From assembly GCA_002118135.1 (NCBI GenBank), contig BDIU01000053.1:310001-374000 (forward strand): a stretch of 64,000 nucleotides of DNA, in the 5' to 3' direction. The stretch comes from Trebouxia sp. TZW2008 (lineage: Eukaryota; Chlorophyta; Trebouxiophyceae; Trebouxiales; Trebouxiaceae). This document shows positions 541-62,133 of this stretch, piece by piece (position 1 is the first letter of the stretch; the number at the start of each line of letters is the position of its first letter). Made by a program: the position numbers and the translations under genes. The notes under the pieces were generated by a model, which was not told the origin of the DNA, did not search any database, and worked only from the letters and a program-made list of their open reading frames with translations.

Positions 541-648
541 GGGGGTGGCGGGGGTTATAGTATCTGCTGGTGGACTGCGCGGATCTGCAGCGGCGGAAGC
601 TGCGGCATCTGAATCAGCCCGTTTGGACGCTGCCCTCTTGTCATGAGC
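541..648 (+). repeat. Degenerate copy of the 711-844 exon
   Basis: This stretch, preceded by its own CAG, repeats the start of the exon at 711-844. Both read as a GTGGC-rich start followed by ATCTGCT, GTGGACTG and CTGCAGCGGCGG blocks in the same order. The copy has at least one single-base insertion relative to the working exon, so it reads a different frame and reaches a stop at 646-648. It is best seen as a dead tandem copy of an exon start, about 170 bp upstream. The remaining sequence from 1 to 540 shows no exon I can support. Confidence 0.6.
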
Positions 649-710
649 ATCATGTGACATGCAAAACCCATATGCGCCTCATATGTTTGACTGCTGCTTT
701 ACCATTGCAG

Positions 711-1682
711 AGGGCGTGGCAGGGGTGGAGCATCTGCTAGTGGACTGTGTCGACCTGCAGCGGCGGGAGCTGTGGCAGTACGTGGCAGCCTGGGGGGCAG
801 CCACCCACCTCCTTGACCCCTTCACTCAGCGCCTCCATCCCAAGGTCAGTGCTTGTAGCACTTGTGCATTGATTTGCAGCTGTTGCACGACATACCTGAT
901 GCAGATTCAGAGATTGCTGTCAACAACATTGATGCCGGCATAGTATTAAGCATGCGTGACACACTGCATACCTGCTGTGCTGTGCAGCAATGCTTAAGTT
1001 GATTGTGTCTGTGCCGCTGCAGAACCAAGTCTTCTTCCGGCAGACAGCCGACATTGCTGCAGAATCTCACTCAGCAGTGGCCGAACCCCTGCAACCACCC
1101 CTGGACCCAAATCAGCTCCTCGTGCTGGCTACACAGCACTACCAGTCGCAAACCCACCAGCCCCTTGCTTACCCCCCGCCCCCCAGCCTGGGACCCAACA
1201 ACCCCACCTTGTCTGACCCTTCAAGGCATGAGCCAACACCCACAGCAGCAGCAGCAACAGGCTATGCACCTGGTCAGTTGATGCTCACTGGAATACCTGT
1301 AGAGAGTCACCCAAGTCAGTGGACAGGTGCAGATGCAGGCAGCAATGGGGTTGCGCAAAGTGGTCCCGGGTTCGATCCCAGGCTAGGTGCTTTGTTGGCA
1401 ACATTGCAGAATCAGCTGGCAGTGCAGAACAGTCATGCAGGCGCGGCACAGCAGATGTCTAGGAGTGCATCCTTTGACAATGCAGCCCGGCAAGAGGGGG
1501 GTTGGCCTAGGCAACCCCAGCCCTCGCCCCAACCCCCGCCCCAAAGTTCTGTGACCTCACAGTCAGGCTTGCATCAGCAGCAGCAGCCGCCACATCATCA
1601 GCAGCAGTCACAGCCGCAGTCACAGATGATGCAAGCACACCAGCCACAAGAGCAAAACCCGCCGTTACAACAAGAGTCTCAG

Positions 1683-1713
<31 letters not shown>

Positions 1714-2193
1714 CTTACTCAGCGGGCATGCCACAGTCAGCAGATCGGCAGGGCCAGGGTCAAATGGCTGCTGATGGCCCTGGCTGGGGCCCTGACCCTG
1801 CTAGCATGCAAGCCCTGCAGACTACGCTGCAGCAGGCGCGGCCACGGCGCTCTTGGGCAGTCCCAGAGGTAGGCACAGTTGTTAGTCATGTAAAGGTGTA
1901 TCACGTGTGTGAGCACAAGAGCTAGAGTGTGGGCAGCCAGTTTGTCTTGGCAGGGCAGCCTGTTTTGAATACAGCCAGAAGAGCTCAACTGCTTTGACTG
2001 ATCAACCCTCCTGGTTCATCTGCATGCTTGCGTCAGCGTGATGTGGTTTGTGCATTGTTGCATGATCTGGGTCAGACAACATTGGTGGCTAGCCTCAGAA
2101 AAACTTGTATATTTTGACAATAGTAACTCATGCGTTTTACAGGATGCTGAGGCAGCACATGAAGAGGAAGCAAGGCGTAGCCTATCCACATGA
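711..2193 (+). CDS. Gln-rich protein, 3' part of gene (unrecognised family)
   Basis: Three exons can be joined without phase conflict: 711-844, 1023-1868 and 2143-2193, ending in TGA. Each is bounded by AG and GT. The first exon encodes a globular-looking segment rich in Leu, Trp and Asp (VEHLLVDCVDLQRRELWQY). The second begins NQVFFRQTADIAAES and becomes disordered, with Pro/Gln blocks and a run of about ten Gln near 1681-1712. The last exon adds a short acidic and basic tail (DAEAAHEEEARRS). The 5' end is either an ATG at 659 read straight into the exon or further exons upstream; the AG at 709-710 favours the second. I do not recognise the family. Poly-Gln proteins of this kind are often transcription-related, but that is inference only. 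It is tail-to-tail with the CofD-like gene. Confidence 0.6.
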
Positions 2194-2848: not shown

Positions 2849-5800
2849 CTAAAAGTCATGAAACCCAACAGGAGGAGCTTCTTTGACATCTGCTTGCACA
2901 TCATTGGTCATGATGCTGCCATTGCTTTGTGCATGGCTGCTCTCTTTGGCTGCCATATGGCTTTCAACGATGTGTTTGATTGCGTTTACAAGCGCATCTG
3001 GCTCGAATTGGCAGGATGAGCCACCATGCTTGACTGAGTCCACCTGTATGATGTGCCTGTATGCACACTCATCAGCATGAGTCAACATGCCAAAGACCGC
3101 TTGTGCGCATGTGCTCATGTCCATGTGATCCTTTCTTGCCAGACTTTGACATGAGTATGTGGTCTAGCGTGATCTTTTAGCGACTATGATCAAACCTGCA
3201 AGTATGCTGGCAAGCATTTAGTGCACATAGCATGCTTCAATTTCAGCCTGTACTTCTACACATGCACACTTGTTTCGACAACACCTGGGTCGGCAGCTGC
3301 ATGTGCACAAGACTTGAGCACTCAATGTGATGCAACAATAAAACAGTCACAGCAAAAGCCAACCATACCTGACACCTAAGGAGCGTAACCTCTGCTTGTC
3401 AACGTGCACTTCTCCTTCAGCAGGCACCAACATTGTCGTCACATATGCATCGGCCGGAAGGGAAAGCTCCGAGTCTGTGTAGCGCCTGTTCAGGCTGTCT
3501 TGCAGAGCATGCACCACATCTGCAGCTCCCATGGGGCCCTGCTGCGCTATGCATGCTGAGGTCTCACGGTCATGGCTGCCGTTCAAAATGACAATCTTGG
3601 GCACATCCCTGGATGCTATGAGCTCGCCTACACCCTGCATACACATGCAAGCTGGTTCAGTACAGCAGAGGAACTACTAGTGCACCCCACACAGCTTGGT
3701 GGCTTGTCTATGTGTCAACTGAAGTTGTGCACTTCAGCCTGTCTGACCATAATTGCCCAGTCAGTGAGAAGCATGCAGAATCAAATCAGCTTCTGAGTTC
3801 AACAAATGCACAGTCTGTCGCAGCGTGTATCTGCTGGCATTGCATGCGTAAAGCAATATCATCGATTGCAGAGAGTCGTGAGCTTGCTGATCAGCACTCC
3901 AACACAAGGGTCCTGTGCAGAGGGCAGTACCTGCAATATGAGGGAAGGGCAGATGGAGGTATAGAGGGAGCCCATGCCATAGAGCACAGCGTCACAGCAG
4001 GTCAGCTCAGTCAGCAGGGCAGCATTGGGGTCTGGGAAGACCTCGTGGTCCTGCTGCTTGCCATCGTGGCGCAGGTACAAGATACGCTGGATAGGCGCCT
4101 CCAGCTGCGGCCCCAACCGCGACTTGTCCACCTGCCCAGGGCCGGGTGTATCTGCATAGATGGGTACTATTCCTCAAATTCAGTTTGATGGGGTTCAGTG
4201 TTTCTGGCACAGGCAAAATACAGTTTTCCTGTTATCAAATTTGTCTCTAGACATGAAAAGGTGAGCTTGGTAGAAGATGCGCTGGGTAGGAGCCTCCAGC
4301 TGAGGCCTCAGCCGCAATTTGTCCACCTGACAACGGCCTGGCGTGTCTGCATATGGACAGCTTTTATTGTGGAACAGGCCAGCTTTTTGTTATTTTGTGT
4401 GTATGTGACAGGGCCACAATGAAAGCTACTCTTGTCTCAAGCGCTTTGCCCCTAGACACTGACAGGCGGGTATGGTAGAGAGCGCAAAACAGACATGTGT
4501 CAGTGCAACAGCTGCAGCCCCGGCCGCGACTTGTCCACCTGCTCTAGGCTTGGTATGTTTACATGTATGGCGCATGCCTCAATATCTTTTCGCAGTCACT
4601 TTGTGTCATCATGACTGAGGGCTCATGTGAACTTGCATGCAATGACAACACAGAGAATCAAGCGGCTGTCACACGCTACTTGGGCGTTCAATGACAGAGC
4701 AGCGATAACCGAGGGGGCCGGTGCAAACAGGTGTAGGCTTCACATTGCCTTTGTCTGGTGAATATATAGCGCTGACATCATGTCCCAACAATGGCAATGC
4801 AGTGTGTGACAAAGCCATTGTGCACAGCATTGCTAGCTGGTGTCATGACATTGCAGCACGACTGCAACAAGAGTGGCAAAGATGCTGGCCTGGCAAAGAT
4901 GGGTGTGAGATCTGGTACAGGCCCATGATGACTAGGCCATACAGGGCAGCATGACAAGCTGATATCCTGCCAGCAGAATGACTGCAGCAGGGTTGACAAA
5001 AGCACTGACCTGGCACAGATGGGTGTGGGATCTTGTTCTGGCCCTTGCTGACTAGGCCATTCAGAACAGCATTACAAGCTGATAGCCTGTCAGCAGCATG
5101 ACAGCCGCAGGGTTGGCGAAGGTACTGACCTGGTATAGACGGGTGTGAGATCTGATTCTGGCCCTTGATGACAAGGCCATTGCTCAGAACAGCCCCCAAG
5201 GTGATGCGCTCCTCTGTGGAGATGACAGGCATCACTGAACTGCCCTCAGGAATCCGAGCCACACGAGAGAAGAGGAAGATGGCCGCTTCCAAGCTGTTGA
5301 AGAAGGTCCTGGCCCCAGCAAAGAAGAAGTTGCCTGCAATATTATGGACGTTTCAATCATCAAGTTCTGCAGCCCAGTGAACCTTTGCTTTGAATCCTTG
5401 TCAGCTTGAGGGCTGCATCACACGGCAGCTGGCACATGCAATACAAAATGCACCAGCCCACGCTCTGTAGTGTCTCAAAATTCCGGCAGATGTATGCATA
5501 CAAGACAACCAAACAGGGAGCAAAAACTGTGTGCAAGTTGAAGCCAGACCTGCCAGACCTGGATGGCTCCTCAATTCGTAGACTTTGGCAGGCATAGGGT
5601 CCCTGCTGTGAGACACAGCATGACCTCTTTCCCAGCCTCACGCATAACAGATTGCAACATGCCAAGTCAGCCTCAGATCACTCATGTTGCTGAGAGCAGA
5701 CATGACTCATGCCTCATCATCGTCGTAGCAGCTGCTTCTTGCCCAGCAAATGTCTACGCATACCTCATGATGATTTTTATGAACACATGACGGCAGCTCT

Positions 5801-7299: not shown

Positions 7300-10200
7300 A
7301 TGGTGACAGTCGACTGCCTGCACCCTCAGACCGCTGCCTGGCTCAAAGATCTGGACTTTACTGACAGTGAAGACGTACGCTTTCAATGTAGTGTTCACAA
7401 TCATACGTCCCACCTGTCACCACCGCCTGCTAAATAAGTCTTGTTTCACAGGATGCGCCACAAGACAACTCTTCTAAGCTGAATGATTTGGCAACCACAG
7501 CGTCAAATGTCGCTGAAAGGAGCGTGACAATGCAGTCTTGTGGGCACAACCTGTTGAGCCTGCCGTCAGAGGTCTTGTTGTCAATCCTGAACCAACTGGA
7601 CCGGTCAGCCCTGGCACAGATGATGCAAACAAGCAAAGGTCTCAGATCAACGTGCTTGGCTGACAGCTTATGGGACAAATTCGGCTCAAGAAGAGTTCCA
7701 CAGACACGCTCCCACTTACAGCAGTACTACAAGCCCAGATCAGCAGCAGCAAGTGCATTCGTCCCAGCCTCAACACCAGATGGAGCAACCACAGACAGCC
7801 AATCTACCAGCCAGACGCCAATTGCTGCGTGCCCTGTGCAGACGTCACGCAACAGTCTCAGTCAGCGCTATGCTTTTCTGGATGATAAGCTGAAGCTGCA
7901 TTACTGTGGAAGTCTGGTACAGCAACCAGCATGGCTGAGCCTCTTGCCAAATGTCAGTTGTCAAGGCGCTGGCTGGCTGTACGCCAAAGCCAAGTGGCTT
8001 TCAGGTACTCTGCAAAGCGTCCAGTCTAATGCCAAATCTAAGCTGTCAAGGTGCTGCTGGCTGTATGCACAAGTCAAAGTGCTGTCAGGTATCTACCAGT
8101 GTGTCCAGGCCTGATGTGCATGGCACCATGGTACCATGAAATCTCTGTATGTACGGCGTGGCAATATTGCAATGCAAGGAGGCTGAGTTTTAGCATATCC
8201 TGCTATGAGCTTGTTGAATGATGTGGAAAGTTTGCAGAACAAGCATGCCAAGCTGTGGCATAGTCTGTTGATGCTCTAGCTATACAGCATGGAAAGTTTG
8301 CAGAACAATCATGCTGGCTGTCAGCACAATTTGCGGACTATTGCAGCTATGGCAATATTGGGTTGACTCTGCAGACTGCACTTTGAGGCAATGTGAGCTT
8401 CCGTACCAAAATCTTCACCACCATGTGCGGAGCAAGCTGCACTCAATGTGGCTTCTAGGCAAAGTCGATGACAGCCTGATGCTTCAGCGCACACTACTCA
8501 AGCTGACAAGTAAGGTTTGACGGGCCCGCATGGGATGCAGTCTTATTTGCTGCTATATGTGCTGAGTGTTATCAAGACACTTGTGCCCTTTCCTTGTGTT
8601 TAAACACAAGGGCAGTTCTTGAGCTTGTGGTGGCTCCAACGCATACTGATGGTTAGCAAGCACAAAAGCTGCTTCAAAAGCGGGAGCAAGCAGCAATGCA
8701 AAGTACTCTGCTTGGATTTTTGACTTGGTCAAAGCCAGGCACATCAAAACTTTGGCAGTGCATTCATGTGGACTGCTGTGCTGGCAAACTGCACTGTCTT
8801 TATGCACAATGCTCGCTTGTCTTGGGCGGCAAGCACCCATTCAAAGCAATCTATATGAACATAGGATTCAGCTGGAGCAAGGCGTATAAGACCCTGGGCA
8901 ATGCATTCTTGTGCCTTCACTGCTCTCACAAGATACTGTGTATCATGCACTGCCCCAATGGCCAGCACCTGCTCAAAGCAATCTAAATGCAGGAATCAGC
9001 TGGAGCAAGGCATAAGAGACCCTGGACAATGCATGTAACATATCGTCTGTGCTGCAAAAAGATGTTTGTCATACACAATGCTCGGCTTCTTGAATAGGCC
9101 AGCACTTCACATGATCTGTTATAGTGCAGGAATCAGCTGGAGCAAGGCATACGAGACCCTGGGCAATGCATTCGTGTACGTCAGCGACTGCATTGCTATG
9201 GACCTGAAAACGGACTTCATCAACCCAGAACTGCAGACCTCTCCCACAGGCTCACAAGCCCAGTCTCTGTGGCATACTGTGCTGCAAGTGTGGCAAGACT
9301 ACAGAACATGGCTGACAAGAGTGTGCAGTCTATGTACACGCCTGGTGGAATGCATTTCAGCAGAAAGAGCAGCAGAGATGATGTCGCGTGCCAAAGCAGA
9401 CACACCAACCCTGTTTGATATGGGCAAAGCAGCGTTTCGTTCCGAGGTGAAATGCCAGCATGGCCGCCTCTTGTCCATGGAATGATTGTGTATTACAGAA
9501 CCTGCTAAAATGTCTTTGCTCAAGAACTCGCCAGTGCCTGAAAGCAAGCACGACATGTAAAACTGCCTTGGCCTTTGAGTGTTGAAGCAAGATCAATCCT
9601 TCACGCTTGCAAGACCAAGGCATTTCTGCATGACATGTTTGATTGCAGGCAGCGCCTAGTCCTTGGCTACCTCAGCAAGATACACCTGAATATCCCTGTA
9701 CCTTCCTTGCTGCATTGGCAAGATCAAAGCATGTGATCTAAACACACAGAACAAAAGGGGTTGTGAAAGGTAATCTTGTCCTCTGGTTCTATTCTTGTGT
9801 CTCAGATGTAGCTGCATCACCATGCTCTTGCTCCTCATGCTGATAGCTGGGTGAAACAGTTGACTCCTCCATGGGGTGTTCTGGACCATGCTGACCTTTG
9901 TCACGTAGGGCATTGGACTGCTCAGCCCTTATGCGCAGAAGAATAGAAAGAAAATGCAAGAACAGAAAAGAATGGCTGCCATGATTACATGACCAATCTC
10001 CATTTGCAGGTGATCTTGGCATACCAATTACGCTCAGCATTGCAGTCAAGCTGGGAGGCACTTCTATCATCAGCCAACTCCAACGCACAAAGTGCTGAGG
10101 ACGCCCATGTGCTTCTGGATGTGTCACGGCTGCTGCAAGAGCTTGATGTGGCAGATGACGGCACAAGACCAGAGGATTATCACACTCAAGAGAGAATGAG

Positions 10201-10888: not shown

Positions 10889-13617
10889 TCAGAGATTTGG
10901 TTTCTGAAGGAGCTGATAGATTCGATTCAGCACTGACTCTACTTGCAGCTTGTCCTGTGCATGTGGAGTGAGCGCCAGGTACTGCTGCAGCAGCTCAGCA
11001 CTGTCTGTATACCTCTGCACTGAAAACAGGCACAAGCCAGCATCTCGCAAGTCTTCAGACTGGTCTCGTGTTGCCCTGCATAGGGACACCTGCTGAGAGC
11101 TTTGCAGTCACATGCTTAGTAAAGTCAGACTGCAGAAGCACTCCTGATGTCAACTGCAGAACACAGTGAGGCATGTCTGTGACACGCCTGATGCTAACTG
11201 CAGAAGACAGTGAAGCATGCCAGTGCCATGCAATGCAACCACTTTCAGCCGAGCTTGAAGGTTGCTGCACAAAACGCAGCTGCAACAGCATGTGTGCTTG
11301 TACTTCAGATTGCTTTGTGAAGGAGATGTGTCAAATGCCAACATCACTGTCACAGAACTCACCAAACCACATCACTGCTTTCAAATGTTGCATCACTTCT
11401 TGCAACTATCACGGCTGAAAGCTGTCTGCACGCACATGACATGCACAGCCCAAACTCAGTGGCAATACAACTTCCGCCCCAAATAGCCAATTCCCACTCA
11501 ACCAAGCAAGTCAAGCATGTACGCTTTCAAAACCAACCTGAGATACACAGTGATCTGTAACACCTTGTCTGCCTGATGCAGGCCTGTGTGGGTATTGCTT
11601 CAAGAAAAGAACGCACACTGCCAACATTGATGCCATTCACGTTCGTGAATCATTGCTCTCCAAACCCATTGCCTAAAGCTGACTGTGGGCGTATGACATG
11701 CACAGCCCAGGCTCAGTGGGCAATGCACTTTTCATCCCACACAGCTATACAACCTTTTGAACAAGCCAACTTCAGCATCCACAGAAAAAACCCACCTGAG
11801 ATACTCAGTGATCTGCAACACCTTGTCCGCCTGTCGAAGGCCTGTGTAGATGTTCTTCAGGTTCAGCAGCATCCGCACCAGCACATCAGGTGTGCCCATC
11901 ACGAGTTCACCCCTTCTTAACAGTGGTGCAAGAGGAGCAGCAGCAGAAAACATGCTGCCGTACTGCTGCTTGAACATCTCGTCTACCTCAGCAGGACTGC
12001 ATAGCTTGAAACCTGCAGCCAGTGGTTGCAAGCAATTTTGTAACAGTACAGCAGACCCTGGAAAAGCTTTGCCATCTGAAGATGGCTCTGAGCTCTTTGA
12101 CAATGCAAGAAGCCAATGTGTAATTTGCTTTTGCGTCTATTGTTTTCGTCATGTTTAAAATTGTGTACAAGTGCTGCTGGCTGGATTTGGACTACGTCTG
12201 TATGCACGGTCATTCACACCTATTTTCACTGCTAAGAATAATGAAAGAGTACCACTGAAAGGATCCACAATCAGGTCAATTGTGCGCTCCGCACTGTTGC
12301 CCACCATAAAATGGCCAGGCAATTGATGGCCATGCATCTTCAGCCCAAGGCACTAAGCTGCTGTCATCCATCAAAAAACCAAATAGCTTACCAGTAACAG
12401 GGTCCACAATCAGGTTCGTGGTGCCTTCCACACTGTTGCCCACCATAAAGTGGCCAGGTAATTGGAGGCCATGCAATTTTGGGCATCAACAATCAAAAGT
12501 GTATAGCTGGATACCAGAGGACTTACCAGTAAAAGGATCCACAATAAGGTTGGTGGTGCCTTCCACGCTGTTGCCCACCATAAAGTGGCCCGGCAACTGG
12601 AGGCCATGCATCTTCAGCCCCAGGCGCTGAGCTACTGCCATATACAGCACTCCCAGTGTGATAGGAATCCCGGTTTGCCTCTCAAGAACCATGTTGATGC
12701 AGCTGTTGTCAGGATCATAGTAGTCCTTCTCATTGCCTTTGAAGCCTGCAACTTCACCCAATTGCCTGCATATACACACAGGAGATTCCTGCTGCACTGT
12801 AGTGCAAGAATGCACTGACATGTTCTGCAACCAAACACTGCTGTGCGCCTAGCAACAACTGCAATGCTGAGATTGAACTGAAATGTTCTGCAACAAGGTA
12901 CTGCTATATAGCAAGCATCAACTGAAGTGCTAAGGGTGCACTGACATACTCTGCAGCCAGAGACTTTTTGAGAAAAAACATAAAAAAGAACAGGTGAGGG
13001 AAGCATCAACTGCAATGCTGCAAGGATGTCCTGAGACAAGCTGCTGTCAGATACTGGAATGTACCAACCAAAGCTGCTTGGATCTGCTCAAGTGACAAAT
13101 GAATTATGCAAGGACGAATTGTTTGCATGAGTGAAATAGGCAGAGCTGTACACGAGATCTGTGGGGCATGCTGCCCTGTCAGGACTTGACATGTATGCTG
13201 AATCGGACTGAAGCAGGGATGCAATACGCAGTGTTGTCAGACCTGGTGATGTAGCTTAGCTCAAAGCCTTTTTGGTCATGAGCTTTTGGGAGGCTAGCCT
13301 GCACTGCCTTGACTTGGTCATCTATGTCGTGCTGACACTTGTCCTCATCCTGCTCGAGGGGCACACAAGTAAGCGTATTGAGTTGCGGAGAAAGCAGGAT
13401 GAGCTTGGCATATGGGTGAGCATTGCATATGGTCAAGCTTTACATATGCAAGGCAAATGTGTTATGTTATCACATGGCACATAAGTGACAGATTTGCAGA
13501 GTGCTCACCAGCAGTGGATGCCTGTGCTTTGCAATCAGCAGTGCTGCTCGAAACAAATCGATGTCGCCAGGTTTCTGTGTAAGTAGCTCACGGTATGCTT
13601 CAAGCGCCTGCACTCGC
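10889..13617 (-). CDS. SirB1-type transglutaminase-like/TPR protein
   Basis: Five exons join in phase on the minus strand: 13509-13617, 13243-13349, 12527-12765, 11796-12012 and 10889-11075, about 285 residues plus an unresolved start. The core at 12527-12765 reads KDYYDPDNSCINMVLE, RQTGIPITLGVLYM and LPGHFMVGN, the SirB1/UPF0162 transglutaminase-like signature. It is followed by the usual C-terminal TPR-like half: VLVRMLLNLKNIYTGLRQ, DAGLCLFSVQRYTDSAELLQQYLAL. The first exon placed (QALEAYRELLTQKPGD) also looks TPR-like. Bacterial SirB1 is about 270 residues and animal FBXO21 shares this domain, but no F-box or YccV domain is visible here. The 5' end lies beyond 13617; open segments at 13880-14720 may contain it. 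Function is not firmly known for the family. Confidence 0.85.
11440..11860 (-). repeat. Duplicated exon end in a SirB1 intron
   Basis: The sequence around the 11796 donor (ACCTGAGATACTCAGTGATCTG on the plus strand, with the upstream CATGCACAGCCCA block) recurs near 11440-11600, offset by about 245 bp. The copy carries the donor context but is diverged. Confidence 0.7.
12258..12622 (-). repeat. Three copies of the SirB1 LPGHFMVGN exon edge
   Basis: The block GTTGCCCACCATAAA lies at 12296, 12435 and 12570, spacings of 139 and 135 bp. Each copy encodes a version of HGLQLPGHFMVGNSVEGT then LIVDPFTG and a donor. The working donor is ACTG|GTAAGT, the middle copy keeps ACTG|GTAAGC, and the outer copy has only GTGGTACTC. 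Both ghosts still read open across the exon part. Confidence 0.85.
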
Positions 13618-17104: not shown

Positions 17105-17136
<32 letters not shown>

Positions 17137-19420: not shown

Positions 19421-19626
19421 GTCATGGGTGCAGTCATGAGTTTGGACTTAGTCGCTGCAACACTGACTTGAAATCAAATATTCATTGTCTTGCTGTTTCT
19501 CAGATTAGAGGAATATTCATTATCTGCTGAAATAATGACCAATGGCTCTTTACTTTTCTTTGTCTTTTGTCCAGCGCAGGGCATCACGATTGGATCAAAT
19601 GCGGGCAGCCCCAAGATGAGCTACAG

Positions 19627-23190: not shown

Positions 23191-23205
23191 AATGGTGCCA
23201 TGTGT

Positions 23206-45500: not shown

Positions 45501-48500
45501 GAAGAAAGGCAGCAGCTCCTGCTGTGCATCTGCTTGGTGGTCAGCATCTGAAACAGGATCTGAACACAGCTCATGGGGTCAGCCGCTTGGTCAATCAGGT
45601 TGTTTACAGTTGTAAGCCACCCATAATCCTGGCCATGCAGACCTTGATATGCATCTCTTGGTGGTCAGTAGCCACTATCTTGCTCCTCAGTAGGAGCGCC
45701 GTGCATCCGAAAAATAACCTGAACACAGCTCACGGGGTCAGCTGCTTAGTTGACCAGATTCCCAGCAGACTTGGATTGCCCACAATGCTGACCCCGCAGG
45801 CCACTGTCTTGCTGCTTGGTGGGAGGCGTCATGCATCTGAACCAGAGCCTGGAAAACAGCTCATAGCGTTAGCCGCTTGATCAATCAGATTGTTGTCAGG
45901 TTTGGGGTGCCCATATTGTCCCAGGATCACGTTCAGGACAGCTGTACCTGATCAATGCTGCAGGTGCAAAGCATACACTTTGCATTGGTCCTTACGTGTG
46001 GCAGGGCACTGATGCCAAACAAGATTGTAGGCGCCAAGCAACAAACTTACCTCATTGCTCACCTGTGACAGAGCCCTGTTACCACCTAGGAAGTGGGGGT
46101 GGTCAGTGTCGATGTAGGTAAGCTTATGCTTCGCAATGCTTGTGCAGTTGCAACATCATTGCCAGGGTCACAGTGCAGGACAGTTGTGCCTGATGAAATC
46201 TGTACAGGCAGAGCAGGATGCTCAGTGCCCGTGACGGAGGGTTTTTACCACCAGGGTAGTCAGTGTTGATGCAGGCAAGCTACCACTGTCATTGCCAAAG
46301 CCACAATGCAATGCAGCTGTCTTTGAACAAAGCTGCAGGTGATGGGCAATGAGTTTGAATCAGTGCACACCTGTGACAGAGCCCTGTTCCCACCCAGGAA
46401 CTGAGGGTGGTCAGTGTTGATGTAGGCAAGCTCACAGTCCACAAGGTCCTGAATCATTCGCTCAGCAGGAGCTGCTCCTTCGCTGATGAAGTCCTCAACA
46501 GCTGCCCTTAGCCGCACCTAAACCACATACAGACTCAGCGTGAATGCCCTGATGGTTGCACTGTTTAGCAACAGCGATGTACATAACAGCTGCCCTTGGC
46601 CACACCTGCATTGCATACAGATGCAGCATAACAATGACGCGTGGGGCATTGTCACAGCTGCTGTCAGTACTGTAGACCAGTCTAGAGCCAGTAGCACCAG
46701 GCAACAGAAACACAGCGCATGCAAATGCCCATGCCGTTTGGACCTGAATATTAAACAGACAAGGCTGCAGGCGGAAGCATTTGATGTTAAACATGTGTTT
46801 CTGAGAAGTATTGGGCAAAGATATCTGGGTGCATGTTGGCTGGCATAGCTGCTCTGCATATATGACATATTGCAATTGCATCCCATGCGTATGGACGTTG
46901 TGGAAAAACAAACAAAAACTGCCAGTGCATGACATATTTATTGGTACTCACACACAAAAGCTCCCTATGCATGACATGTGCATTGGCCTCGTGACAGATG
47001 GACAAACAGTACCTAGAGGTTGGAAAAGCAGCTGACATCAGCAGGTGCACACTGGCTGGCAATGCGCAGAAGCTCAGCATGCACAAACTGCTGCAGATAC
47101 ATGAAATGCTTATTGAAACCGTGGAAGTTGAACAAAAAAATACCTGTAGGTTGGGAAAGCGGCTGACATCTGCAGGTGCACACTGGCTGGCAATGCGCAG
47201 CAGCTCAGCATGCACAAACTGCTGACACTGTAGGGCTGAGGGCAGTAGACAGCTGATGGCCCTGCGCACCAACAGCTCAAATGGAGCTTCTGGGAGCAGG
47301 ACGCTGCCCCTCACACCACCACTGTTCTTGATGGCTGTTCTGACATCCTCGTCTGTCAGCTCACTGCAGAGCAACAAAAGAGTCAACATGTTTGGCTGCG
47401 ACCAATGAGCACTTGCTGCTGCATCAGGGCAAGATATGAAGCAGCAGAGGGGTGGCGACTAAGTGCAAGCTTGGGACTGCCAGTAGATGTTGCTCAACAT
47501 GTCAACCCAAGCTAGCAAACCATGCCCTTGATGAGAAATGAGCATGAAGATCGTGGCGTTTACCTAGATGGGTCCAGCTCGCCAACTCCTTGCACAAAGA
47601 TGTCTTGGAAAATATGTCGGATGCGTGCTCCTCCAGCCAGTTCTGAAGTGGGCAGCTGCTCACTGCGCCCATCCAGCATCTCCCCATATCGCACAGCATA
47701 TGCGTCCAGCAGCCGCAATAGCAAAGCACCGCTGCAGTCATCAGCAGCACAGCATTGATACATCTGGGATGAGCAGCTGCCCTTTGCGCCCGTCTAGCAT
47801 GTCACCATACTGCACAGCATAAGAGTCAAGCAGCCGCAGCAGCAGGGCACCGCTGCAGTCATACTTTTACATTGCTCTGCACCCTCATCTGTCCGTGCTG
47901 ATGACTGCAGCAATGCCCTGCTGCTACAGTCATGATCACAGATAGTTGAGCGTGCAGAGAAATGTGAAAGTGCAGGTGATGAGTGCAAGCTGCCACACAG
48001 GACAGATTAGCAGCATTGTCTTTAGCGATGTCAGGCATGCATTGTGTTGCAAGGGGTGCAGAAGCTGAGCCAACAGCAAGATGCACTCCCACAGAATTTA
48101 AGACTGGAATGCATGAAGCTTCACAACGCAAATGGGCAATGCAGCAAGCATCATGATCGGATTGATATGGACTGTGAGATGTTGACCATGCGTCCAGACC
48201 AGCTGTGGTGGCATTATGCTGCTGCCCAATTGCCTCTCCGACTCGTGACTGAGGCGAGATGCAGCTGTATAATTTTCAACCTGACCACAGTCCTGCAAGA
48301 GGCTGCCCACCTGGTGCCAGAAGACTGCCCATTCAAGGGGTCGCCATACAGCTTCAGCTCATGAAAGTGCTTGTCCAGCATGTCCTCTATGCTGGTTTTC
48401 AGACTTGGCAGCAATGCCTTGATGTGCTCCACAAGGATGTGATTCAGGGCCTTGGCCAGGTTGTGTAGGCCGCATTGGGCAGCAACACTGTTGTATTCAG

Positions 48501-50900: not shown

Positions 50901-53900
50901 ATGTCACAATACATTCAGGAAGCAATACAACAAATAGACAGCTTGCTCAGCTCTCAGGCAAATGGCACAACCACTGCAGCTCCACCCAAAGCCCCTGCGC
51001 AAAAGTCAGGTGCCAAACAGGCTTCAGAAAGCATGCCTGGCTAAAGCGGGATAAGGCAAGTAAGCCTGACGCCATCATTACTGCTGCAGGGTCTGCGCCT
51101 CGTGCAGCCACAATGGCAAAGGCAAAAGGCAAGCAACCTGCTGATAAACCTTCCGTGACCCCAACAACAATGAAAGCAGCAGCTCCTGCAAAAGATCCGG
51201 TTCTGTTACCTGCCAGGCAGCAAACAGATGGCGCGCAACCTAGTGAAATTGTTCCCAGTGTGCGAGCAGAGCTGACTGATGCCTTCAAGCATGCACTGGA
51301 CGCAGCATACCCATCAGCCAATGTTGAGGCTGTTGTTGCACAAACAAATGAACCTAAATTTGGAGACTATCAATGCAACAATGCCATGGCATTGTTTGGT
51401 CAGCTCAAGGGCAAGGTACGATTCTGTTTGAAGTCATGCTTGCCAGTGTCACTGTTGAGCTGAAGCTGTCTGCTGTATGATGGCCTGATTTTGCTTCACC
51501 AGAACGCTCAACTGACTGTGGATCCTGTCATCACACAATGACTGTGCCACTACAAGACACCATGCTCACTAATGCGGCTACACAGGCAAAGCTTGCCACA
51601 GCGTTGCCAAGCTTTGCCTGCCAACATTACGACAAGCTTGGCACAACATGCTGATCCGCCATCAAATTATCTTCTTCTCCTGTTGCAGCCTGATGCTCCA
51701 AAGAACCCCAGAGCAGTAGCAGAGAGCATTGTGGCTGCTCTCCCCAGCACTGAGTACCTACAAGACAAGCCCACCTTAGCAGGGCCAGGTTTCATCAATG
51801 CCAAGATCTCCAGTCAGTGGATGGGCGTCAGAATACAGAACATGCTCAGACAAGGCATCAAGACATGGGCACCTCGACTGAATCGCAAAAGGGTTGTTGT
51901 TGACTTCTCTTCGCCGAATGTAGCAAAGGAGATGCATGTGGGTCATCTGCGGTCGACCATCATTGGAGACACAATCTCTCGCACACTGGAGTTCTGTGGA
52001 GCTGATGTACTGCGACTCAACCACATTGTGAGTCCCTGCAGCCTCCCACACAGCTTCTGTGGTATCCAGTGTTCATCTGCATGCAACCAGTTGCGTCGTA
52101 TACCTTGACGGCCATTGTCTGCACCACTTTCAGAGCTGTACTGGCATCCAGGCAGGATGTGGCTGCTACATCTGCTGTTGTGGAGTGTGTGATGATGTTT
52201 GATGCTATGCTATGCTGTCACTCTATGCAAGACAGCTTGCTGGATACATGAATGTCTGCAGTCTAGGCTCTTAAAGCACTGTCCATGGCAATCATAGCAT
52301 GAAAAGGTGCATTGACCATCTTTTCAGGCTTGCAACTTTCTGCATTTCACACACAGGCATTGCACTGCACAGCGTTCCACTCAGCTGAAGCTCATGACAT
52401 GATGAGTATTTTCAACAACACCTTTGGCATTGCAGGGGGACTGGGGAACGCAATTCGGTATGCTGATCCAGTATCTAGATGAGGCAAGGGAAGGAGGTCT
52501 TGCAGACCCCACTATTGCTGATCTGTCCCTTCCTGAGCTTCAGGTTTGTGCCTTTCTCTTTCTCCATCTTGGGGCACATTTCAGCACCAACAGCTCTATC
52601 ATGCTCAGAAGGATGTAGAAAACAGCTTTCACTGTTGCATGTTGGGCCTTTCTGGATACAGCTTTACCTAGTTCTGCACTCTATAGTCCAATGTGCACAG
52701 TGTGTCAGTGCTGCTGCTTGAGGCACAGGCTGCAATTGCAAAACTCTTTCTCGCTCAAGCTCATGTGTGTCAGCATACGCTCAACCATCATGTGCAATGT
52801 GTACATTTGGGCGTGTTCGCCTGTTTTGCAAAGGTGACTGTGCTGTTTTGATTTGTGAGCCACATCTTTGTAGCCGCAAGCCAGCTCACTGAACTGGTCA
52901 CCTCAGTCGATCTGCAGTGTATGTTGCATGCGGAATCATTTTACAGATGCAGGTCTCATCTGACCTGATCTGTCTTACATGCCACGCAAGGCTTGCATTA
53001 TCTCCTACTTACACGCAATGAACACAGCTTTGATATTACCTGTTGCACGCAGACCATGTACAAAGCGTCCAAGCAGAGGTTTGATGCTGACGCTGACTTC
53101 AAGGAGAGAGCCAGGAAAGCAGTCACAAAACTACAAGGCGGAGATGCCCAGTTCATCAAAGCTTGGGAGCGCATCTGTGAAGCATCCCGCAAGGTCACAC
53201 CTTTGACATGCACCCTGCACTGCATTCAGCCAGTCATTCAAGTCAAACAGACAAGCCATCAATCACCCACAAAGTTTGAAGAACGCTCTGTGAGGCCTCC
53301 TGCAAGAAGATGTGTTGACATGCACCCTGCTCTGTAGTCAGCCTGCTGGTCTATTGGGTAACCAATCAAACACTAAGTTTGAGTGGCGCACCCTGAAGCA
53401 TCTTGCAGTTCATCTGGACACACACCGTCTACTCACAAGCAAACAATTGGTCACCTGTGCTGTGATGTCAATCTGGTCCGCAGCAAGGGCATACATAGCA
53501 GCAGTCCACTGTCTGCAAGTAAGGCACGCTCTCTGCCTCTCTGTCATCCAAATCCTTCAATAGCTTCACTCAAGAAATGAATGAAGCTTTTGCAGGCCTT
53601 GAACGCCTGTGTAAGGATTGAGGTGCCTTCTGCTGCTTTTGGTTGTTTGTCACAGTCAGGATGCCTATGCATGTGGTCCTACTGCAGTGCTTCAGGCTAC
53701 CTGCCTGTGTAAGGCTTGAGGTGCTTTCTACTGCGCATGGCTGTTTAGTCACAGTCTGGCTCAAAATGCCGACGTAGTAGGTCCCACTGCAGTGCTCCAG
53801 AATGGTAGCACAGTTGCTGACAATGCAAGATACAAATCTGCCCTCTTGAGGTGCATGAGTGTGCGCACCACTGCTGTTTTGCAACACACAGGTTCAGGCA

Positions 53901-56900
53901 GTGTGTGCCAAACAACATGTGTGCGTCTACAAGACAGGAGGAGAGCTATTATAACCCAATGTACACAGATGCCCACTTGAGGTACGAGGGTCATCGGCGC
54001 TGCCCTTATGTAGTGTGTGAGAGGGGTATGCAGCAGTATACGCTTGACTGAGTGTGCGCTTGGGAGACAGGGGTGAAAGCTATAACAATCCTATGCTGCA
54101 ATGTTGAGGTGCATGTGCATATCATCAGTACTGTGCAATGCAGGGGTATGAGGCAGAGTATGCTCAACTTGCTGTGCACTTGTAAGACAGGGGAGAGCTA
54201 CTACAAGCCAATGTGCGCTGTTGAGATGCATTGACTTTATCATCTAGTAGTGTCATTATCTCTGCTTCTCGATGCAGGGGTATGAGGCAATGTATATACC
54301 ACTCGCGGTGCGCTTAGAAAGGGGAGAGGGCTATCACACCCCGATGTGCCCTACTGAGGTGCATGCGCATTTTCGCTACTGTGCAATGCAGGGTCCGAGG
54401 CAGCGTATGCCTGACTGGGTGTGCGCTTACAAGACAGGGGAGATAGCTACTACAAGCCAATGCTGCCCTGTGTATGCGCATCATCATGGCTATTGTGCAA
54501 CGCAGGGGTACGAGGCAGTATATGCCCGACTTGCTGTGCGCTTACAAGACAGGGGAGAGAGCTACTACAACTCGATGCTGCCAGGCCTGGTGCAATGGCT
54601 TGTACAGGAACAGATTGCAGAGGAGAGTGAAGGTGCCAAGGTCATATTTGTTAAGGTAAGCGCAATTGCTTGCTGAGGCATCTCTCCCTCCTCCCCTTGC
54701 GGTTGTCGTCGCAAATCATGCTTGCTGCCAAACCATTGTGGGCTGTTGATGCATGCAGCATCTCTGTGAGCACAGCACCAAATCGCCACACAGTTTGCGT
54801 ATGTGTGTGGATGAGTTGCTGCAGCAATCAGTAACGTTCTGAAGATACGGAAAAGTCTGCAGACTGCTCAGCTTTACTACACCGGTTTCTGCTGTACTTG
54901 CCTGGTCAGCGTCGCTGCAGTACAACTTATACAGCAATGCAATGCAGCATCTTGAAATCAAGTATTACTCACCTGCTGATACCACAAACACTTGGACATC
55001 AACACAAAGAAATGTTGTTCCACCAGTTCACTGCACTGCATCTGTATGTTTCATATCTGCCTCAGCTCATACAGCTTGTCACTGCTGCACGTGTAAGATC
55101 ATCTATGCAAGCTAATGTCAAGCTGTTGTGGGTGCAGGAGAAAGACAAGGGTCCACCCTTGATAGTCCAGAAAACAGATGGGGGTTATGGCTATGCAACC
55201 ACGGATATGGCAGCCATCAGAAATAGGCTGCAAGATGAGAAAGGCGAATGGCTCATATATGTGACAGACATGGGTCAAGCACCGCATTTTGAGGCAATCT
55301 TTGCTGGTGCTGAGAAGGCTGGTTTCATTAAGCCTTTGCCTAGCGGGAGATTGCCTCGTTTGGACCATGTTGGGTTTGGTGTTGTTTTGGGTGAAGATGG
55401 CAAAAGGATAGCCACCAGATCTGGAGAGGTGAGTGCTTTTGCCAAGTTATCATGATCAGCTCCGTCACCTTTGACTATAGCATAGTTGCTTGTCCTTGTC
55501 TAGATGTGTCAGCATATGTGTTGACTTGCTTCGTAGCCTGAGTCATTTGGCAAAATTGTATTTGTGTTGCTACAGATGCCGTGGCTTGGTCCATGCTTGA
55601 GTCAGGGTGTCCAAAGCTGCAGGCGTTGCTTGGCATTGCATACTTCACAAGCAAGTCTAATTTGGAAATTGACGCTGACATCAGTCAACTGATTGATAAT
55701 GCATGCTCAAGGATTTGCTTGGAGAGCATTCTCCTATAGCACTGTCAGCATGTGTTGTAGAGACTGGTAAATGCATTTTTGGATGACAATCTTCAATGCT
55801 TTTCACTCGTTCACAGTGACTAACCACTGCTGCAGTCCGCTTGGTTGGTTTGTTGGATGAGGCTAAGGCAAAATGCGCCGGCACTCTCAAGGACAGGCAG
55901 GAGGACATCAGCGATCAGGCAATATACAATTTGTCTGTTCTTGCAGTCAGTTCAGCTGGCCGAGTTGCTGAATGAGGCTCTGGCAAAATGCACTAGCACA
56001 CGCACTCGTGAAGGTCCACTGTGATTGCAGTCAGTGCGATTGGTGGAGTTGTTGGATGAGGCCAAGGCAAAATGCGCTGGCACTCTCAAGGACAGGCGGG
56101 AGGATATCAGCGATGAGGAACTAGACAAGAGCGCTGGCATCATGGGCTATGCAGCTGTCAAATATGCTGACCTCAAGAACAACAGGACCACAAACTACAA
56201 GTAAGCTCCATGAAGCTTTTGCCCTTGTTGCTTGAATATTGTCTTTGACTGCATTCGTACAATGATGAATGCAAATCATGCCATACAATTTGGTGGACCT
56301 TTTGCATTTGCGGGCTATGTCGCTGTGCTCGTGCTCAGGAACGACTGGTCTTGTAACTTTTGTATGCTATTTATGCAATGCGCCTGTGAGTCCTCCTCTG
56401 CCTCAGGGTTTGTCACAAGCACTGGGGCTGCGTGGGCATGCCCCTACCTAGTGTCATGTGATCACCAAATGCTGGTCAGAGCTTCAATCTAGTTCGTCAT
56501 CGTACGTCATGTTGCATCATCATACGTCATGATGCATTCAGAGTATTGAGTGCCCACAAAAACATCACGGGATACGAAACAGAAAGTGTCTCCAAGGGAT
56601 TTTTTCTCCTCTTTCTCTGTCAGAGAAAAAGCTGATGATGAGCTGCCTGCATGATGAGCAAATGCACACTAGCCAGAAAGGCTATCTTTGTCCACTGAAT
56701 CTGCGACGCAGGTATCATTCAGCTTGCTGTGTTGTGCAGATTCATGTTGGATGACATGCTGAGCTTGCAAGGCAACACAGCAGTGTACCTGCTGTACGCA
56801 CATGCCAGAATAGCAGCCATTGGGCGCAAGGCAGGCATTGAAGACATTGCAGCTCTGGCGCATGACCACCCAATAGAGGTGGACCATGAGAAAGAGCGCA

Positions 56901-58473: not shown

Positions 58474-61400
58474 ATGACTCGCAATAGCGTGCTCGCGCAA
58501 CGAGCTGTGCTGACACTGATCTCCACGTTGTTGCTTCTTGCTTCGGCTGTGTCAGGTGCCCGTTTACACTTGCAACACGTCAATACCAAAGCATTTGTAT
58601 CACTTCAGCACACCACGCAGCTGCCAGTCGGGCCATGTGTTGACCTTTGCACCCTGCAGGCCTTGAGGTGTACTTGAGACAGCTCAATGTCCACCAGATC
58701 CGCAGAGTTCCAGTGTAGGCATCATGCATTGTGCAGCGTGCACAAAATGCTGTGCTGCTGGAGCTATGGGTCAATGCGTTGTTGCAACTGCAGGTTTGAG
58801 GGAGAGGCTTCCATATATTTCCAGTGTGCAAGTAAGCTTTCACAAGTGTTGAACAGCAGCTGCAAGCATTGTGACAGTGACTGCAAGCAGTGAGTCGATG
58901 ATTGCAAGCATTGTGACAGCAGCTACATGTGACCAGCCCATTGACTAGCCAAGCAGCAGGCAGACGGTGCCCAAATGGGAGCTGATGAGTCCTGTGAATG
59001 CAGATGAAGGTCAACTCTTCCTGCCCAAAGTACAGACCACGGTACGACTCAGTTGGTGCGAAATGCAGGCAATCTTGCATTCCATAGTGTCTTGAGCCTT
59101 GTGCGTTGCAACAGCGCAAACGTTCACCTGCACAGGGAACAAGAGCATAGTGGGTCACAATGGCCATCATACTTTACTGTATCACCAACATCATGAGCGG
59201 TTGTACAAGTATGTTCACTTTGCATGACATCAATGCAGTCTTGTAGCCCATTGAGCAAGCTCTTTCAACATTGCACTGCGCTCCAACACAATATAATGCA
59301 TAGCAGAAATTCAGCTGATAAGCCGCCTGAGCTGGTGAAGCTGTCGAACATACATAACAAAGACATGTACCATGCAAGAGGGTGGATTGCAGTTGTGTGT
59401 GCCCCACAGGATGTTGAGTACTACTGGAATGCTGGTGACCTCGCTGTGGCTTCAGTCCCGCCCAGATCCTGCAAAGCGTGTGCTTTCTGGGAAGAGCGCA
59501 AGTTCCCTTTCAGAAAGGTCAGACAGTGCCCTACGCTGTGCCTAGATTCTGTGCATCAGTGAGCATCAGCATACATTATGCCTCAATAGAATGTGTCGAC
59601 TCAGACTATGCAGACACTTGACACTGCTCAACAAGCAGCATGTGCAACTCAATTGATGCCTGACCGTCTGCAACATGTGTGTGCTAAGGAGACTGTCCAG
59701 TTGCATGTCACTGTTCATGATGCTCAGACAGCAAATGGCATGCAACATTGCACAACACCTTGGCGCAGGCCACATGCTGGACCCCCTGAAATAGCTGCAC
59801 AAAAGTTGCACAGGGTGCTACAGCATTAGCAGCAGCAACTGTAAACTCTGTACTCTGTGCAGTATTGTGCAGCATATGCATCAGCTTAGGTGTGAGTGGT
59901 GTCACAGATACTCTCATGCCCAAGTGACCTCTGAGTCTCAAAAGATGCACAGGGTAGGCCAGCAATACCAAGTCAGGATCTGCTGTTACTGCTTTTTGGA
60001 AGCACCTGCTTTGGCTCCTGGCAATGTCATGCAACATCGCTAGCAGGCATGTCAATAATCCTGACAATGACTTGCTGAGGGCATTCACTCATGCGCACTC
60101 ACAGTGTTGCCAAGTGTTTGCCATCACCTCGTTTGTTTGTGTCTACTGCACAGCTGGGCCGTGGTTTTAAGTGCAATCATACGCAAACCACGTAAGAGAC
60201 GACGATGACTTGCTGAGTGCAGGATGACATACTGGGCCTTGAGTTCCAAGTGTGTGAAGTGGATTTTGCAGAGAATGGTCTGACCATCAAGTCAGCGCAA
60301 GATGCTTTTGACGCTACTTTCGAGTGTCAGGATTGCAAGGCTGTTCCACCAGCCCCTCCTCCACCTGCCCCTTCTGCTCCTGCTGCCCCATCTGGCCAAG
60401 ATACTCAACACAGGTAAGCTATGGCCAGGTGATGTCAGGTTACAACAGACTGGGCTAGGCCAGGTTGTCGATCAGTAGACTTTACAGTTCAGACAGTTCC
60501 ATAAGCCCCTGTCCCTCCCCCTCCCCCTGCCCCTGCTGCCCCATCTAGTCAAGATGCTCAACACAGGCTAGCATCCGGTTGCTCACAACTTTTGACATCA
60601 AGATGCCTGCGCACATTGTCATGCTTTTTCACGCCACCTGCATGTTGTCTTAGAATCAAGCAAGGGACAAGCCCCACCAGCCAATCTCATTGCAAATTAC
60701 CAAAGTCAACAAACTCCAGTCTGTTTGTGTCTTAAAAACTGGACGAGGACTGCTTCATTTGGCGCTATGGCATGACTGTTGCAGTGCGCCAAGAGTTTAA
60801 TCTGCTTGTGCATTCAGGCGGGCTGGGTTTTCTGCTCTTTCCAAAAAGATCATCAAATCCTGTTTTATCCTTCAACTTGCTTGTGTCTCCTTGCAGGTCA
60901 AGATGGCTGTCAGGAGGAGGCATTGCAGCCATTGTCATCATTGCCAGCATGAGTGGCATCCTGCTAGGCGTGATTGGCTTTGCTGTGGTTCAGCATGTAA
61001 AGGCTAAGCAACGGGCACAAGCTGCAGTTGCATTTGAAGCAGCCCAGTCAGAGTTGGGCCTTGACGAGACCTTTGAGCAGGTGAAATTGCCACAGTCATC
61101 ACAATCATCCTCATTTTCACGCTTGCTAGTGACCCTGATAGGGGTGCTCGGCTTTGTATGGTAGGGGTAGTTGGCATTGCCGTGTCCCAGCACGTGAGAA
61201 GCCAAGCAAAGGGCTCAGGCTGCAATTGCATTTGAAGCAGCCCAGTCAGAGTAAGGTCTTGATGAGACCTTTGAGCAGGTGAGTCTACCCATGCAGAAGC
61301 CATGCACAGTGTGGCATTGCAGATCAAGCTGTTATGGGTGGCTTTGCTGTGTTTTCCAGCATACAAAAGCAACGGGCTCAGGCTGCAGTTGTCTTTGAAG

Positions 61401-62133
61401 CAGCCCAGTCAGAGTTGGGCCTTGATGAGACCTTTGAGCAGGTGAACTTGCCACAGTCATCACAGTAGTCAGCATTTGCATGCTTGCTAGCAAATATCCA
61501 TGGGGTTAGAATGGTTGGCATTGCCATGTCCCAGCATGTGAGAAGCCAAGCAAAGGGCTCAGGCTGCAGTTGCCTTTGAAGCAGCACAGTCAGAGTGGGT
61601 CTTGACAAGGCCTTTGAGCAGGTGAACTCGCCATAGTCATCACAATTATCCTCATTTGCATGCTTGATAGTGAAGTTCTGTGACCCTGATAGGTGGGTTT
61701 GGCTTTGTATGGTAGGGGTAGTTGGCTTTGCTGTGGTTCAGCATGTGAAAGGTAGGCGCAGGGCTCAGGCTGCAGCTGCCATTGAATCAGCTCAAGCAGA
61801 GTTGGGTCTTGACAGAACCTCTGAGCAGGTGACAATACTGCATCAGGCATGCACAAATTATGGCTCTTCAACGGGCTCAACTCAGTCATTTGGCTGTTCA
61901 TGCATGAGGCCCTGCACGGAGCGAATCACGGTCAAAGCTCAAACGTACTGACCTGCTGACCGTTCTCAAATGAGTGTCCATGTACTGTATGGCCATCATG
62001 GCACTGTGTTGCTTCGAGCATTGAGTGCTCAGACTTTTAGCTGTGTGTGCAGGATACAGAGGCCTTCCATCAGAGTTTGTTGCACCCCAGTGCATGGTAC
62101 AAGCTCAAAGATGGACCTTCTGACGGAGACTGA
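58474..62133 (+). CDS. Type I membrane protein of unknown family
   Basis: Exons that join in phase: 58474-58555 (signal peptide, AVLTLISTLLLLASAVSG), 58660-58714 (LEVYLRQLNVHQIRRVPV), 58794-58831 (FEGEASIYFQCA), 59004-59041 and 59323-59517 (LSNIHNKDMYHARGWIAV, VEYYWNAGDLAVASVPP). After an unresolved stretch come 60223-60413 (LGLEFQVCEVDFAENGL, then a Pro/Ala stalk), 60897-61080 and 62053-62133. The exon at 60897 has one membrane span (GGIAAIVIIASMSGILLGV) and a basic-then-acidic helical tail (KAKQRAQAAVAFEAAQ). The last exon ends AWYKLKDGPSDGD. The layout is an ectodomain with several Cys, a Pro-rich stalk, one span and a short cytosolic tail. I considered p24/emp24 and LAMP and found no match. 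The ectodomain has at least one further exon between 59518 and 60222. Confidence 0.6.
60340..60566 (+). repeat. Duplicated Pro-rich exon end
   Basis: CCTGCCCCTGCTGCCCCATCT..CAAGAT.CTCAACACAGG is present at the working exon end (60413) and again ending at 60566, 153 bp on. The ghost has a GC in place of the donor GT and an in-frame TAG. Confidence 0.75.
60960..61828 (+). repeat. Five-copy array of the membrane-tail exon end
   Basis: The block coding QRAQAAVAFEAAQSELGLDETFEQ with its GAGCAG|GT donor ends at 61080, 61278, 61441, 61621 and 61828 (spacings 198, 163, 180 and 207 bp). The second copy has a TAA stop and the fourth a one-base loss. The third and fifth remain open in the correct frame; the fifth reads VQHVKGRRRAQAAAAI with a donor. 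They could be alternative exons. Confidence 0.88.

What the first reader, a model, noticed from the sequence alone, without database searches (positions are those of the whole stretch)
541..61828. Introns built from tandem copies of splice junctions (ghost exons)
Seen directly: in at least twelve places across seven genes, a segment spanning an exon-intron boundary is repeated in tandem inside the adjoining intron. Units are about 85-210 bp, often near 120-135 bp. Copies occur on the acceptor side and on the donor side, always next to the working exon, and range from near-identical to barely visible. Inference: introns in this genome lengthen by serial duplication of the splice-site region, leaving decayed exon edges that could act as decoy or alternative splice sites. 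I know of no described system where this is the main mode of intron growth, though tandem exon duplication itself is well known.
Basis: partly seen in the sequence, partly recalled or inferred. Interest (0 to 1): 0.92.

Follow-up and report, generated by a model that had tools for sequence, protein, structure and literature searches.

The report
Ghost exon edges from tandem duplications
The genes of this Trebouxia-like green alga carry many decayed, roughly 130-base local copies, some of which bring a piece of an exon and its splice site into the neighbouring intron; they look mainly like by-products of a general duplication process, though a mild preference for exon edges is not excluded.

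Summary
In the window, 13 of 116 tested junctions have a copy of the exon edge in the adjoining intron; three of the 13 belong to a true coding-exon array and one exon call is doubtful. Clearest is arginyl-tRNA synthetase, with exons fixed by homology: one exon is preceded by five decayed copies of its own start. It is genome-wide: 28 of 265 sampled junctions, 6 of 20 kinase exons chosen by rank. Copies also lie inside exons, introns and between genes (12.7%, 11.4%, 6.2% of bases), without a peak at junctions. Exon edges have copies 2.6 times as often as intron segments (95% 1.4-4.6); position-blind duplication with one-sided decay predicts 1.25-2.16, so targeting is neither needed nor excluded. 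Most likely a general short duplication process (median offset 129) made them, and junction-spanning ones survive because one splice-site copy still works. Ghost splice sites decay neutrally. Young copies are nearly absent. In eight ghosts the exon block is preserved but its intron flank is not: unexplained.

The parts
540..607 (+). Ghost copy of the start of exon 711-844 (acceptor side), offset 171; TTGCAG kept at 534-539
711..844 (+). Working exon (predicted) whose start is copied
   Evidence: gene model
4807..5130 (-). CofD-like gene: two tandem copies (period about 120) of the donor end of the exon that by eye ends near 5130; ghost donors near 5010 and 4890. The gene finder put the donor at 5010, so which donor works is not certain
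4269..4353 (-). Copy of 4074-4158 (82%, offset 195), CofD region; a further copy at 4509-4570
8030..8091 (+). Copy of 7945-8007 (79%, offset 85), read by eye as a donor-side ghost; the gene finder did not place a donor at 8005
8863..9034 (+). Two copies (8863-8912, 8998-9034) of the sequence at 9128-9177, which by eye starts an exon; the gene finder called this region intergenic
11418..11602 (-). Copy (121 intron + 64 exon bases) across the donor of exon 11796-12012, offset 257
12250..12475 (-). Two donor-side ghosts (period about 135-139) of exon 12527-12745 of a Transglut_core2 (SirB1-like) gene
31413..31485 (+). Acceptor-side ghost of exon 31631-31875 (BSD-domain gene), 89%, offset 211; intron flank hardly recognisable as copied
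43104..43248 (-). Acceptor-side ghost of exon 42588-43028 (dynamin GED), 90% over 145 bp, with a stop; a further copy at 43309-43363
43756..43801 (-). Copy of the donor edge of exon 43956-44146, offset 192
47770..47862 (-). Acceptor-side ghost of exon 47564-47731 (dynamin), offset 121
53270..53343 (+). Donor-side ghost of ArgRS exon 53053-53193
53873..54504 (+). Five ghost copies (spacing about 110-135) of the start of ArgRS exon 54506-54655; three carry stops, the one at 54278-54355 is open but has lost a codon, the farthest has indels
54506..54655 (+). Working ArgRS exon (GYEAVYARLAVRLQDRGESYYNSMLPGLV...), placed by homology
55833..55999 (+). Two ghosts (55833-55929, 55935-55999) of the start of ArgRS exon 56031-56200
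60496..60567 (+). Donor-side ghost of exon 60223-60413, offset 153
60962..61856 (+). Tandem array of open coding exons (RAQAAxAFEAAQSELGLDETFEQ): exon duplication, not ghosts

Best explanation
A general process in this genome duplicated short stretches (mostly about 80-200 bp) in place, head-to-tail or with a spacer, with little or no regard to splice sites. When a copied stretch spans an acceptor, the order becomes intron-edge, exon-edge, intron-edge, exon-edge, rest of exon. Only the downstream copy continues into the exon body, so the upstream copy becomes intron and decays as a ghost. At donors the mirror image holds. Such events cost the gene little, so they persist, and the intron lengthens by the unit. 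Ghosts stay recognisable longer than copies inside introns because the working exon is held by selection and only the ghost drifts. Shown: the copies, their size, direct orientation, decay, and that they also occur away from junctions. Inferred: the neutral fate and the absence of targeting.
For: 173 of 174 direct pairs lie within 1 kb, against 6 inverted and a shuffle mean of 0.67. 89 arrays in 231.5 kb, smallest offset median 129, quartiles 108-162. Coverage flat from 0 to 300 bp from junctions; exon 12.7%, intron 11.4%, intergenic 6.2%. Pairs touching no exon cover 5.5-5.8% of mid-intron (200-500 bp from a junction) and of intergenic bases. Exon-edge excess 2.6 (1.4-4.6), overlapping the simulated 1.25-2.16. 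17 of 31 ghosts (nearest copy) show a stop or an indel in the aligned edge, and more than half of the differences alter the amino acid (predicted frames). AG/GT retention is neutral. Queries spanning two arrays match nowhere else in 68.5 Mb. Four relatives' ArgRS proteins lack ghost-derived inserts. In rice, tandem duplications dominate 50-200 bp insertions and are ascribed to repair of adjacent nicks (passages).
Against: My first ratio (2.23) counted ghosts on the intron side too; cleaned, it is 22 of 314 exon edges against 180 of 6696 intron segments, 2.6-fold, above every simulated value although the interval overlaps them. Pairs touching no exon cover only 0.3-3.2% of intron within 200 bp of a junction, so most copies there involve an exon (partly by construction). 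In 14 of 30 junction ghosts with a testable flank the intron part is less alike than simulated for equal-age copies; in eight of these (seven acceptors, one donor; 11796 left out because its blastn alignment crosses the junction) it is no better than unrelated flanks. Positions over 500 bp from a predicted exon have almost no copies (0.7% of 11.5 kb). In-exon offsets are multiples of three in 10 of 16 (p 0.016 against one third) but also in 13 of 28 within introns or between genes, so the selection filter is not shown.
Confidence: 0.62

Rival explanations
1. The splice-site region itself is preferred or targeted: introns lengthen by a process favouring splice junctions.
For: Exon edges have copies 2.6 times as often as intron segments (22 of 314 against 180 of 6696; 95% 1.4-4.6), above the simulated 1.25-2.16. 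Most copies within 200 bp of a junction involve an exon. Alignments often stop within 1-20 bp of the junction.
Against: The interval overlaps the position-blind expectation; coverage is flat with distance from junctions up to 300 bp; exon-free copies are as dense in mid-intron as between genes.
Confidence: 0.17
2. The copies are functional alternative or mutually exclusive exons.
For: 60962-61856 is a tandem coding-exon array; one ghost (SirB1-like donor, 12392-12475) differs from its exon by 7 synonymous and 1 non-synonymous change; one ArgRS ghost is open; the first CofD ghost is 120 bp (40 codons) downstream and stop-free.
Against: Many hold only one edge of a longer exon; 17 of 31 have a stop or indel in the aligned edge; AG/GT retention fits neutrality. 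Relatives' proteins contain none (ArgRS only, four proteins).
Confidence: 0.06
3. In the poorly flanked subset, the exon block was refreshed by conversion from the working exon, or copied with an end at the splice site, instead of being part of a simple tandem duplication.
For: Eight ghosts with exon blocks at 81-92% and flanks no better than unrelated flanks; 9 of 12 spacers examined had no forward local match above control.
Against: Weak flank similarity shows in several with laxer scoring (for example p 0.008 and 0.018); later indels and gene-model errors could mimic it; non-tandem local duplications are known in rice.
Confidence: 0.2
4. Dispersed element or introner insertion.
For: None found beyond the resemblance to intron-borne repeats.
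Against: Queries spanning two arrays match only their own place (that search skips very common words); copies match the adjoining exon.
Confidence: 0.01
5. Assembly artefact.
For: Only a draft (527 contigs) was available and reads were not.
Against: As whole alignments copies differ by 9-35%, which mis-joins do not produce; local pairs were found on 18 of the 27 other contigs sampled.
Confidence: 0.01

Closest known systems
Tandem duplications from repair of adjacent nicks or breaks in rice (Vaughn & Bennetzen 2014, seen only through PMC7971508 and PMC7407515, passages read)
   Same: In-place duplications of about 50-200 bp, also partly tandem and non-tandem local copies; structural changes fewer in exons than in introns
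   Different: There they are young and scored between varieties; here they are old (9-35% diverged) and recognised through exon edges. Breakpoints cannot be read here
Tandem exon duplication and mutually exclusive exons (PMC9013439, part 1 of 4 read)
   Same: Copies of an exon in the same gene, found by aligning exons to their own gene
   Different: Here often one edge of the exon, with decay; only 60962-61856 resembles the known kind
[quoted passage not shown] potato RdRp, PMC4974935, passages read)
   Same: Tandem duplication across an intron-exon boundary, splice signals copied from the parent junction
   Different: Here, as far as seen, no new intron is made; an existing one grows and the copy decays
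Introners and transposon-borne introns (recalled)
   Same: Lengthen or create introns by inserted copies
   Different: Dispersed through the genome; the two arrays tested here are single-locus

Membership tests
Patch-repair type short tandem duplication | Direct, local copies of about 50-200 bp | tested here: met
   offset median 129, quartiles 108-162; 173 direct local pairs against 6 inverted. Short units would be missed after decay
Patch-repair type short tandem duplication | Copies adjacent, copy length equal to inserted length | tested here: inconclusive
   best alignment covers at least 90% of the offset in 28 of 89 arrays, less in 61; age blurs the ends
Patch-repair type short tandem duplication | Origin by offset nicks with fill-in, not slippage | not testable with these tools
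   needs fresh events with an unduplicated ancestor
Mutually exclusive or duplicated coding exons | Copy is a whole exon with both splice sites and an open frame | tested here: not met
   partial exons, stop or indel in 17 of 31 (an open ArgRS ghost is an exception); met for 60962-61856
Mutually exclusive or duplicated coding exons | Copies are transcribed and spliced | not testable with these tools
   no RNA reads for this genome
Intron gain by tandem duplication | A new intron absent from relatives | not tested
   no related DNA could be searched
Introner or transposable element | Many dispersed copies of the same sequence | tested here: not met
   one match each, the array itself (2 arrays tested)

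The most novel reading that the evidence does not exclude
In the subset of ghosts whose exon block is well preserved but whose intron flank is not, the copy really ends at the splice junction: exon edges are re-copied into the intron, or refreshed from the working exon, by a process that sees the exon-intron boundary (for instance an RNA-involving repair or exon-limited conversion), on top of general tandem duplication. The cleaned 2.6-fold excess at exon edges would fit this.
Probability: 0.1. Interest if true: 0.85.

Novelty: new variant of a known kind. Interest (0 to 1): 0.55.

Why it matters
About one tested junction in nine (41 of 381; a few in true exon arrays or doubtful exons) has a lookalike of its own splice edge within 1 kb, and 23 of the 31 ghosts that start at the edge keep AG or GT. 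That makes a natural, replicated test of how a spliceosome ignores close decoys, and a fossil record of how introns lengthen without transposons. It also warns gene finders: the self-trained model here took an ArgRS ghost for the real exon. If the scarcity of young copies is real, the genome records a finished burst of a duplication-type mutator.

Tried and rejected
The first gene-finder training collapsed into tiny exons and was replaced by a stricter one; its exons are predictions, and several (in L005, L010 3435-3492, window 5010) are doubtful. One search read the first gene from the window edge in a wrong frame, and some predicted proteins there include ghost pieces taken for exons. Splice-site targeting: my first test let ghosts count on the intron side; the repeat without them moved the ratio from 2.23 to 2.6, so I lowered confidence in the position-blind reading from 0.72 to 0.62 and raised its rival from 0.10 to 0.17 and the novel case from 0.08 to 0.10. 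Multiple-of-three filtering in exons: suggestive only. Acceptor versus donor difference in the poorly flanked class: 8 of 16 against 2 of 15 by my labels, p 0.054, not claimed. Strong constraint on ghosts as a cause of that class: synonymous to non-synonymous changes 61:72 there against 82:128 elsewhere (two donors labelled in that class then, 11796 and 12527, do have flank homology by blastn), so not supported, though a mild difference remains. No baseline from another alga or plant could be computed: no eukaryotic relative is held for this genome and metagenome scans were capped at zero. The organism's name is inferred from proteins: ArgRS 84% identical to Trebouxia sp. C0010, 87% to an unnamed entry. 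Paper searches for a prior description (listings capped) showed none; the library lacks most subscription papers. Papers: passages of PMC7407515, PMC7971508, PMC6652019, PMC4974935 and part 1 of 4 of PMC9013439 were seen, the rest only as listings.
Full report
What the window is. The window is bases 310001-374000 of contig 52 of a 68.5-Mb, 527-contig genome. Its arginyl-tRNA synthetase is 84% identical to that of Trebouxia sp. C0010, 87% to an unnamed entry and 68% to an entry labelled Astpho2 (Asterochloris, as I recall), so it comes from a Trebouxia or near relative, a lichen-type green alga. Recognisable genes include CofD-like, BSD-domain, Transglut_core2 (SirB1-like), dynamin (N, M and GED parts), tubulin cofactor C and ArgRS.

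The observation. Aligning the window with itself gave 45 direct pairs, 44 closer than 750 bp. Adding thirteen 10-kb stretches from other places, 194 kb in all, gave 174 direct pairs, 173 with offset under 1 kb, the commonest class 100-150 bp (39 pairs), against 6 inverted pairs and a mean of 0.67 direct pairs in three dinucleotide shuffles. The copies are local, direct and far beyond chance. Twelve of the fourteen sequences have at least one such pair; L003 and L011 have none.

Homology-anchored cases. ArgRS exons can be placed without a gene finder. Exon 54506-54655 (GYEAVYARLAVRLQDRGESYYN...) is preceded in its intron by five copies of its first 75-85 bases, most of them with some intron attached; three of the five have TGCAG just before them. 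Three of the copies carry a stop, one of these also a frameshift; the copy at 54278-54355 is open but has lost a codon and changed elsewhere; the farthest has indels. Exon 56031-56200 has two ghosts of its start, and exon 53053-53193 one of its donor end. Four relatives' proteins show no such inserts. By eye, the ghosts share residues that the window's exon has and both nearest relatives lack (E, A, D and Y in GYEA..LAV..QD..SYY; not every ghost has all of them, and one has the relatives' G for A), while the exon itself later changed a P, still seen in four ghosts, to S. The copies thus appear to post-date the split from those relatives. The self-trained gene finder took the open ghost for the exon.

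Genome-wide rate. With predicted exons, 13 of 116 window junctions and 28 of 265 sample junctions have a copy scoring at least 44 within 1 kb on the intron side. Three of the window's 13 lie in the coding-exon array at 60962-61856, and several predicted exons are doubtful. Independent of my gene models, I took from a whole-genome Pfam search the first twenty protein-kinase matches whose open frame was at most 172 codons. Six of 20, in 7 of 40 flanks, had a copy above the 99th percentile of mismatched flanks (that null contains other kinase exons and reaches 97; all six also have blastn pairs at E 4e-15 or better). The 37.5 kb held 31 direct pairs and no inverted ones at E 0.001.

Is it tied to splice sites? 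Coverage by copies is 12.7% of predicted exon, 11.4% of intron and 6.2% of intergenic bases. In introns it is 12-14% at every distance from 0 to 300 bp from a junction, 8.7% at 300-500 and 0.7% beyond 500. Counting only pairs that touch no exon, coverage is 0.3% within 50 bp of a junction, 2.4% at 50-100, 3.2% at 100-200, 5.8% at 200-300, 5.7% at 300-500, 0.7% beyond, and 5.5% between genes. So the process works away from exons, and equally in mid-intron and between genes, but near junctions most copies involve an exon, partly by construction. A first comparison gave exon edges 2.23 times the rate of intron segments (29 of 313 against 92 of 2217). That count let ghosts score on the intron side; without them it is 22 of 314 against 180 of 6696, 2.6-fold, bootstrap 1.4-4.6. 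A position-blind simulation, in which the ghost drifts while the working exon is held, gives 1.25-2.16. Targeting is therefore not needed, but a modest preference is not excluded. Exon interiors at least 60 bp from an edge have intron copies in 13 of 1517 tests. That ghosts lie beside the working exon follows from geometry.

What the copies are. 89 independent arrays in 231.5 kb have a median smallest offset of 129 bp, quartiles 108-162. In 28 of 89 the best alignment spans at least 90% of the offset; the rest have spacers or decayed ends. Two arrays searched against the whole genome match only themselves, so they are not dispersed elements. Splice dinucleotides survive in 12 of 16 acceptor and 11 of 15 donor ghosts, against 11.8 and 11.1 expected from the ghosts' divergence: neutral decay, no sign that decoys are kept. 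Short tandem and locally displaced duplications of this size are the commonest insertions in rice and are ascribed there to repair of adjacent nicks (passages). That is the closest known process; I cannot test the breakpoints.

Age. Of 78 arrays with a best pair of 45 bases or more, none exceeds 91% identity; taking any pair of that length, none of 79 exceeds 92.5%. With stringent scoring, among the 60 longest of 129 pairs, stretches of 75-242 bases reach 94-95%, two of 47 bases reach 96%, and one of 52 bases with offset 54 is exact (L010). A steady process should leave more young copies.

What is not explained. For 30 junction ghosts with a testable flank, 14 have an intron flank less alike than simulated for copies of equal age, and in eight of these (seven acceptors, one donor; 11796 left out because a blastn alignment crosses its junction) it is no better than unrelated flanks (window 31631 is borderline at p 0.05), although the exon block is 81-92% identical. 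With laxer scoring weak flank similarity shows in some. Later rearrangement, conversion from the working exon, or copying that stops at the junction are all open. The small number and the predicted exons forbid a stronger claim.

Verdict. I saw no prior description in eight paper searches.

Noticed in passing
window 33160-33340 and 56995-57147: A dispersed repeat of about 175 bp; 40 matches in the genome including itself, the others at 70-81% identity (a lower bound). The second site has pogo-like looking ends by eye (recalled).
   Followed up: partly
window 60962-61856: Tandem array of open coding exons in a single-pass membrane protein gene.
   Followed up: partly
window 5010-5130: The first CofD ghost donor lies 120 bp (40 codons) past the likely donor with no stop between: a possible in-frame alternative donor.
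   Followed up: no
window and L002-L014, introns: Positions more than 500 bp from a predicted exon are almost free of copies (0.7% of 11.5 kb), unlike the 12-14% nearer by; long predicted introns may be partly mis-modelled.
   Followed up: partly
L010:3665-3770: The only exact copy among the 60 longest stringent pairs (52 bp, offset 54).
   Followed up: no
G000:C73:131817-132422 and C130:70887-71249: Kinase-domain matches to the same profile segment side by side, the extra C130 one with a stop: likely ghost exons found by profile search alone (C73 fetched as L019, C130 not fetched).
   Followed up: partly
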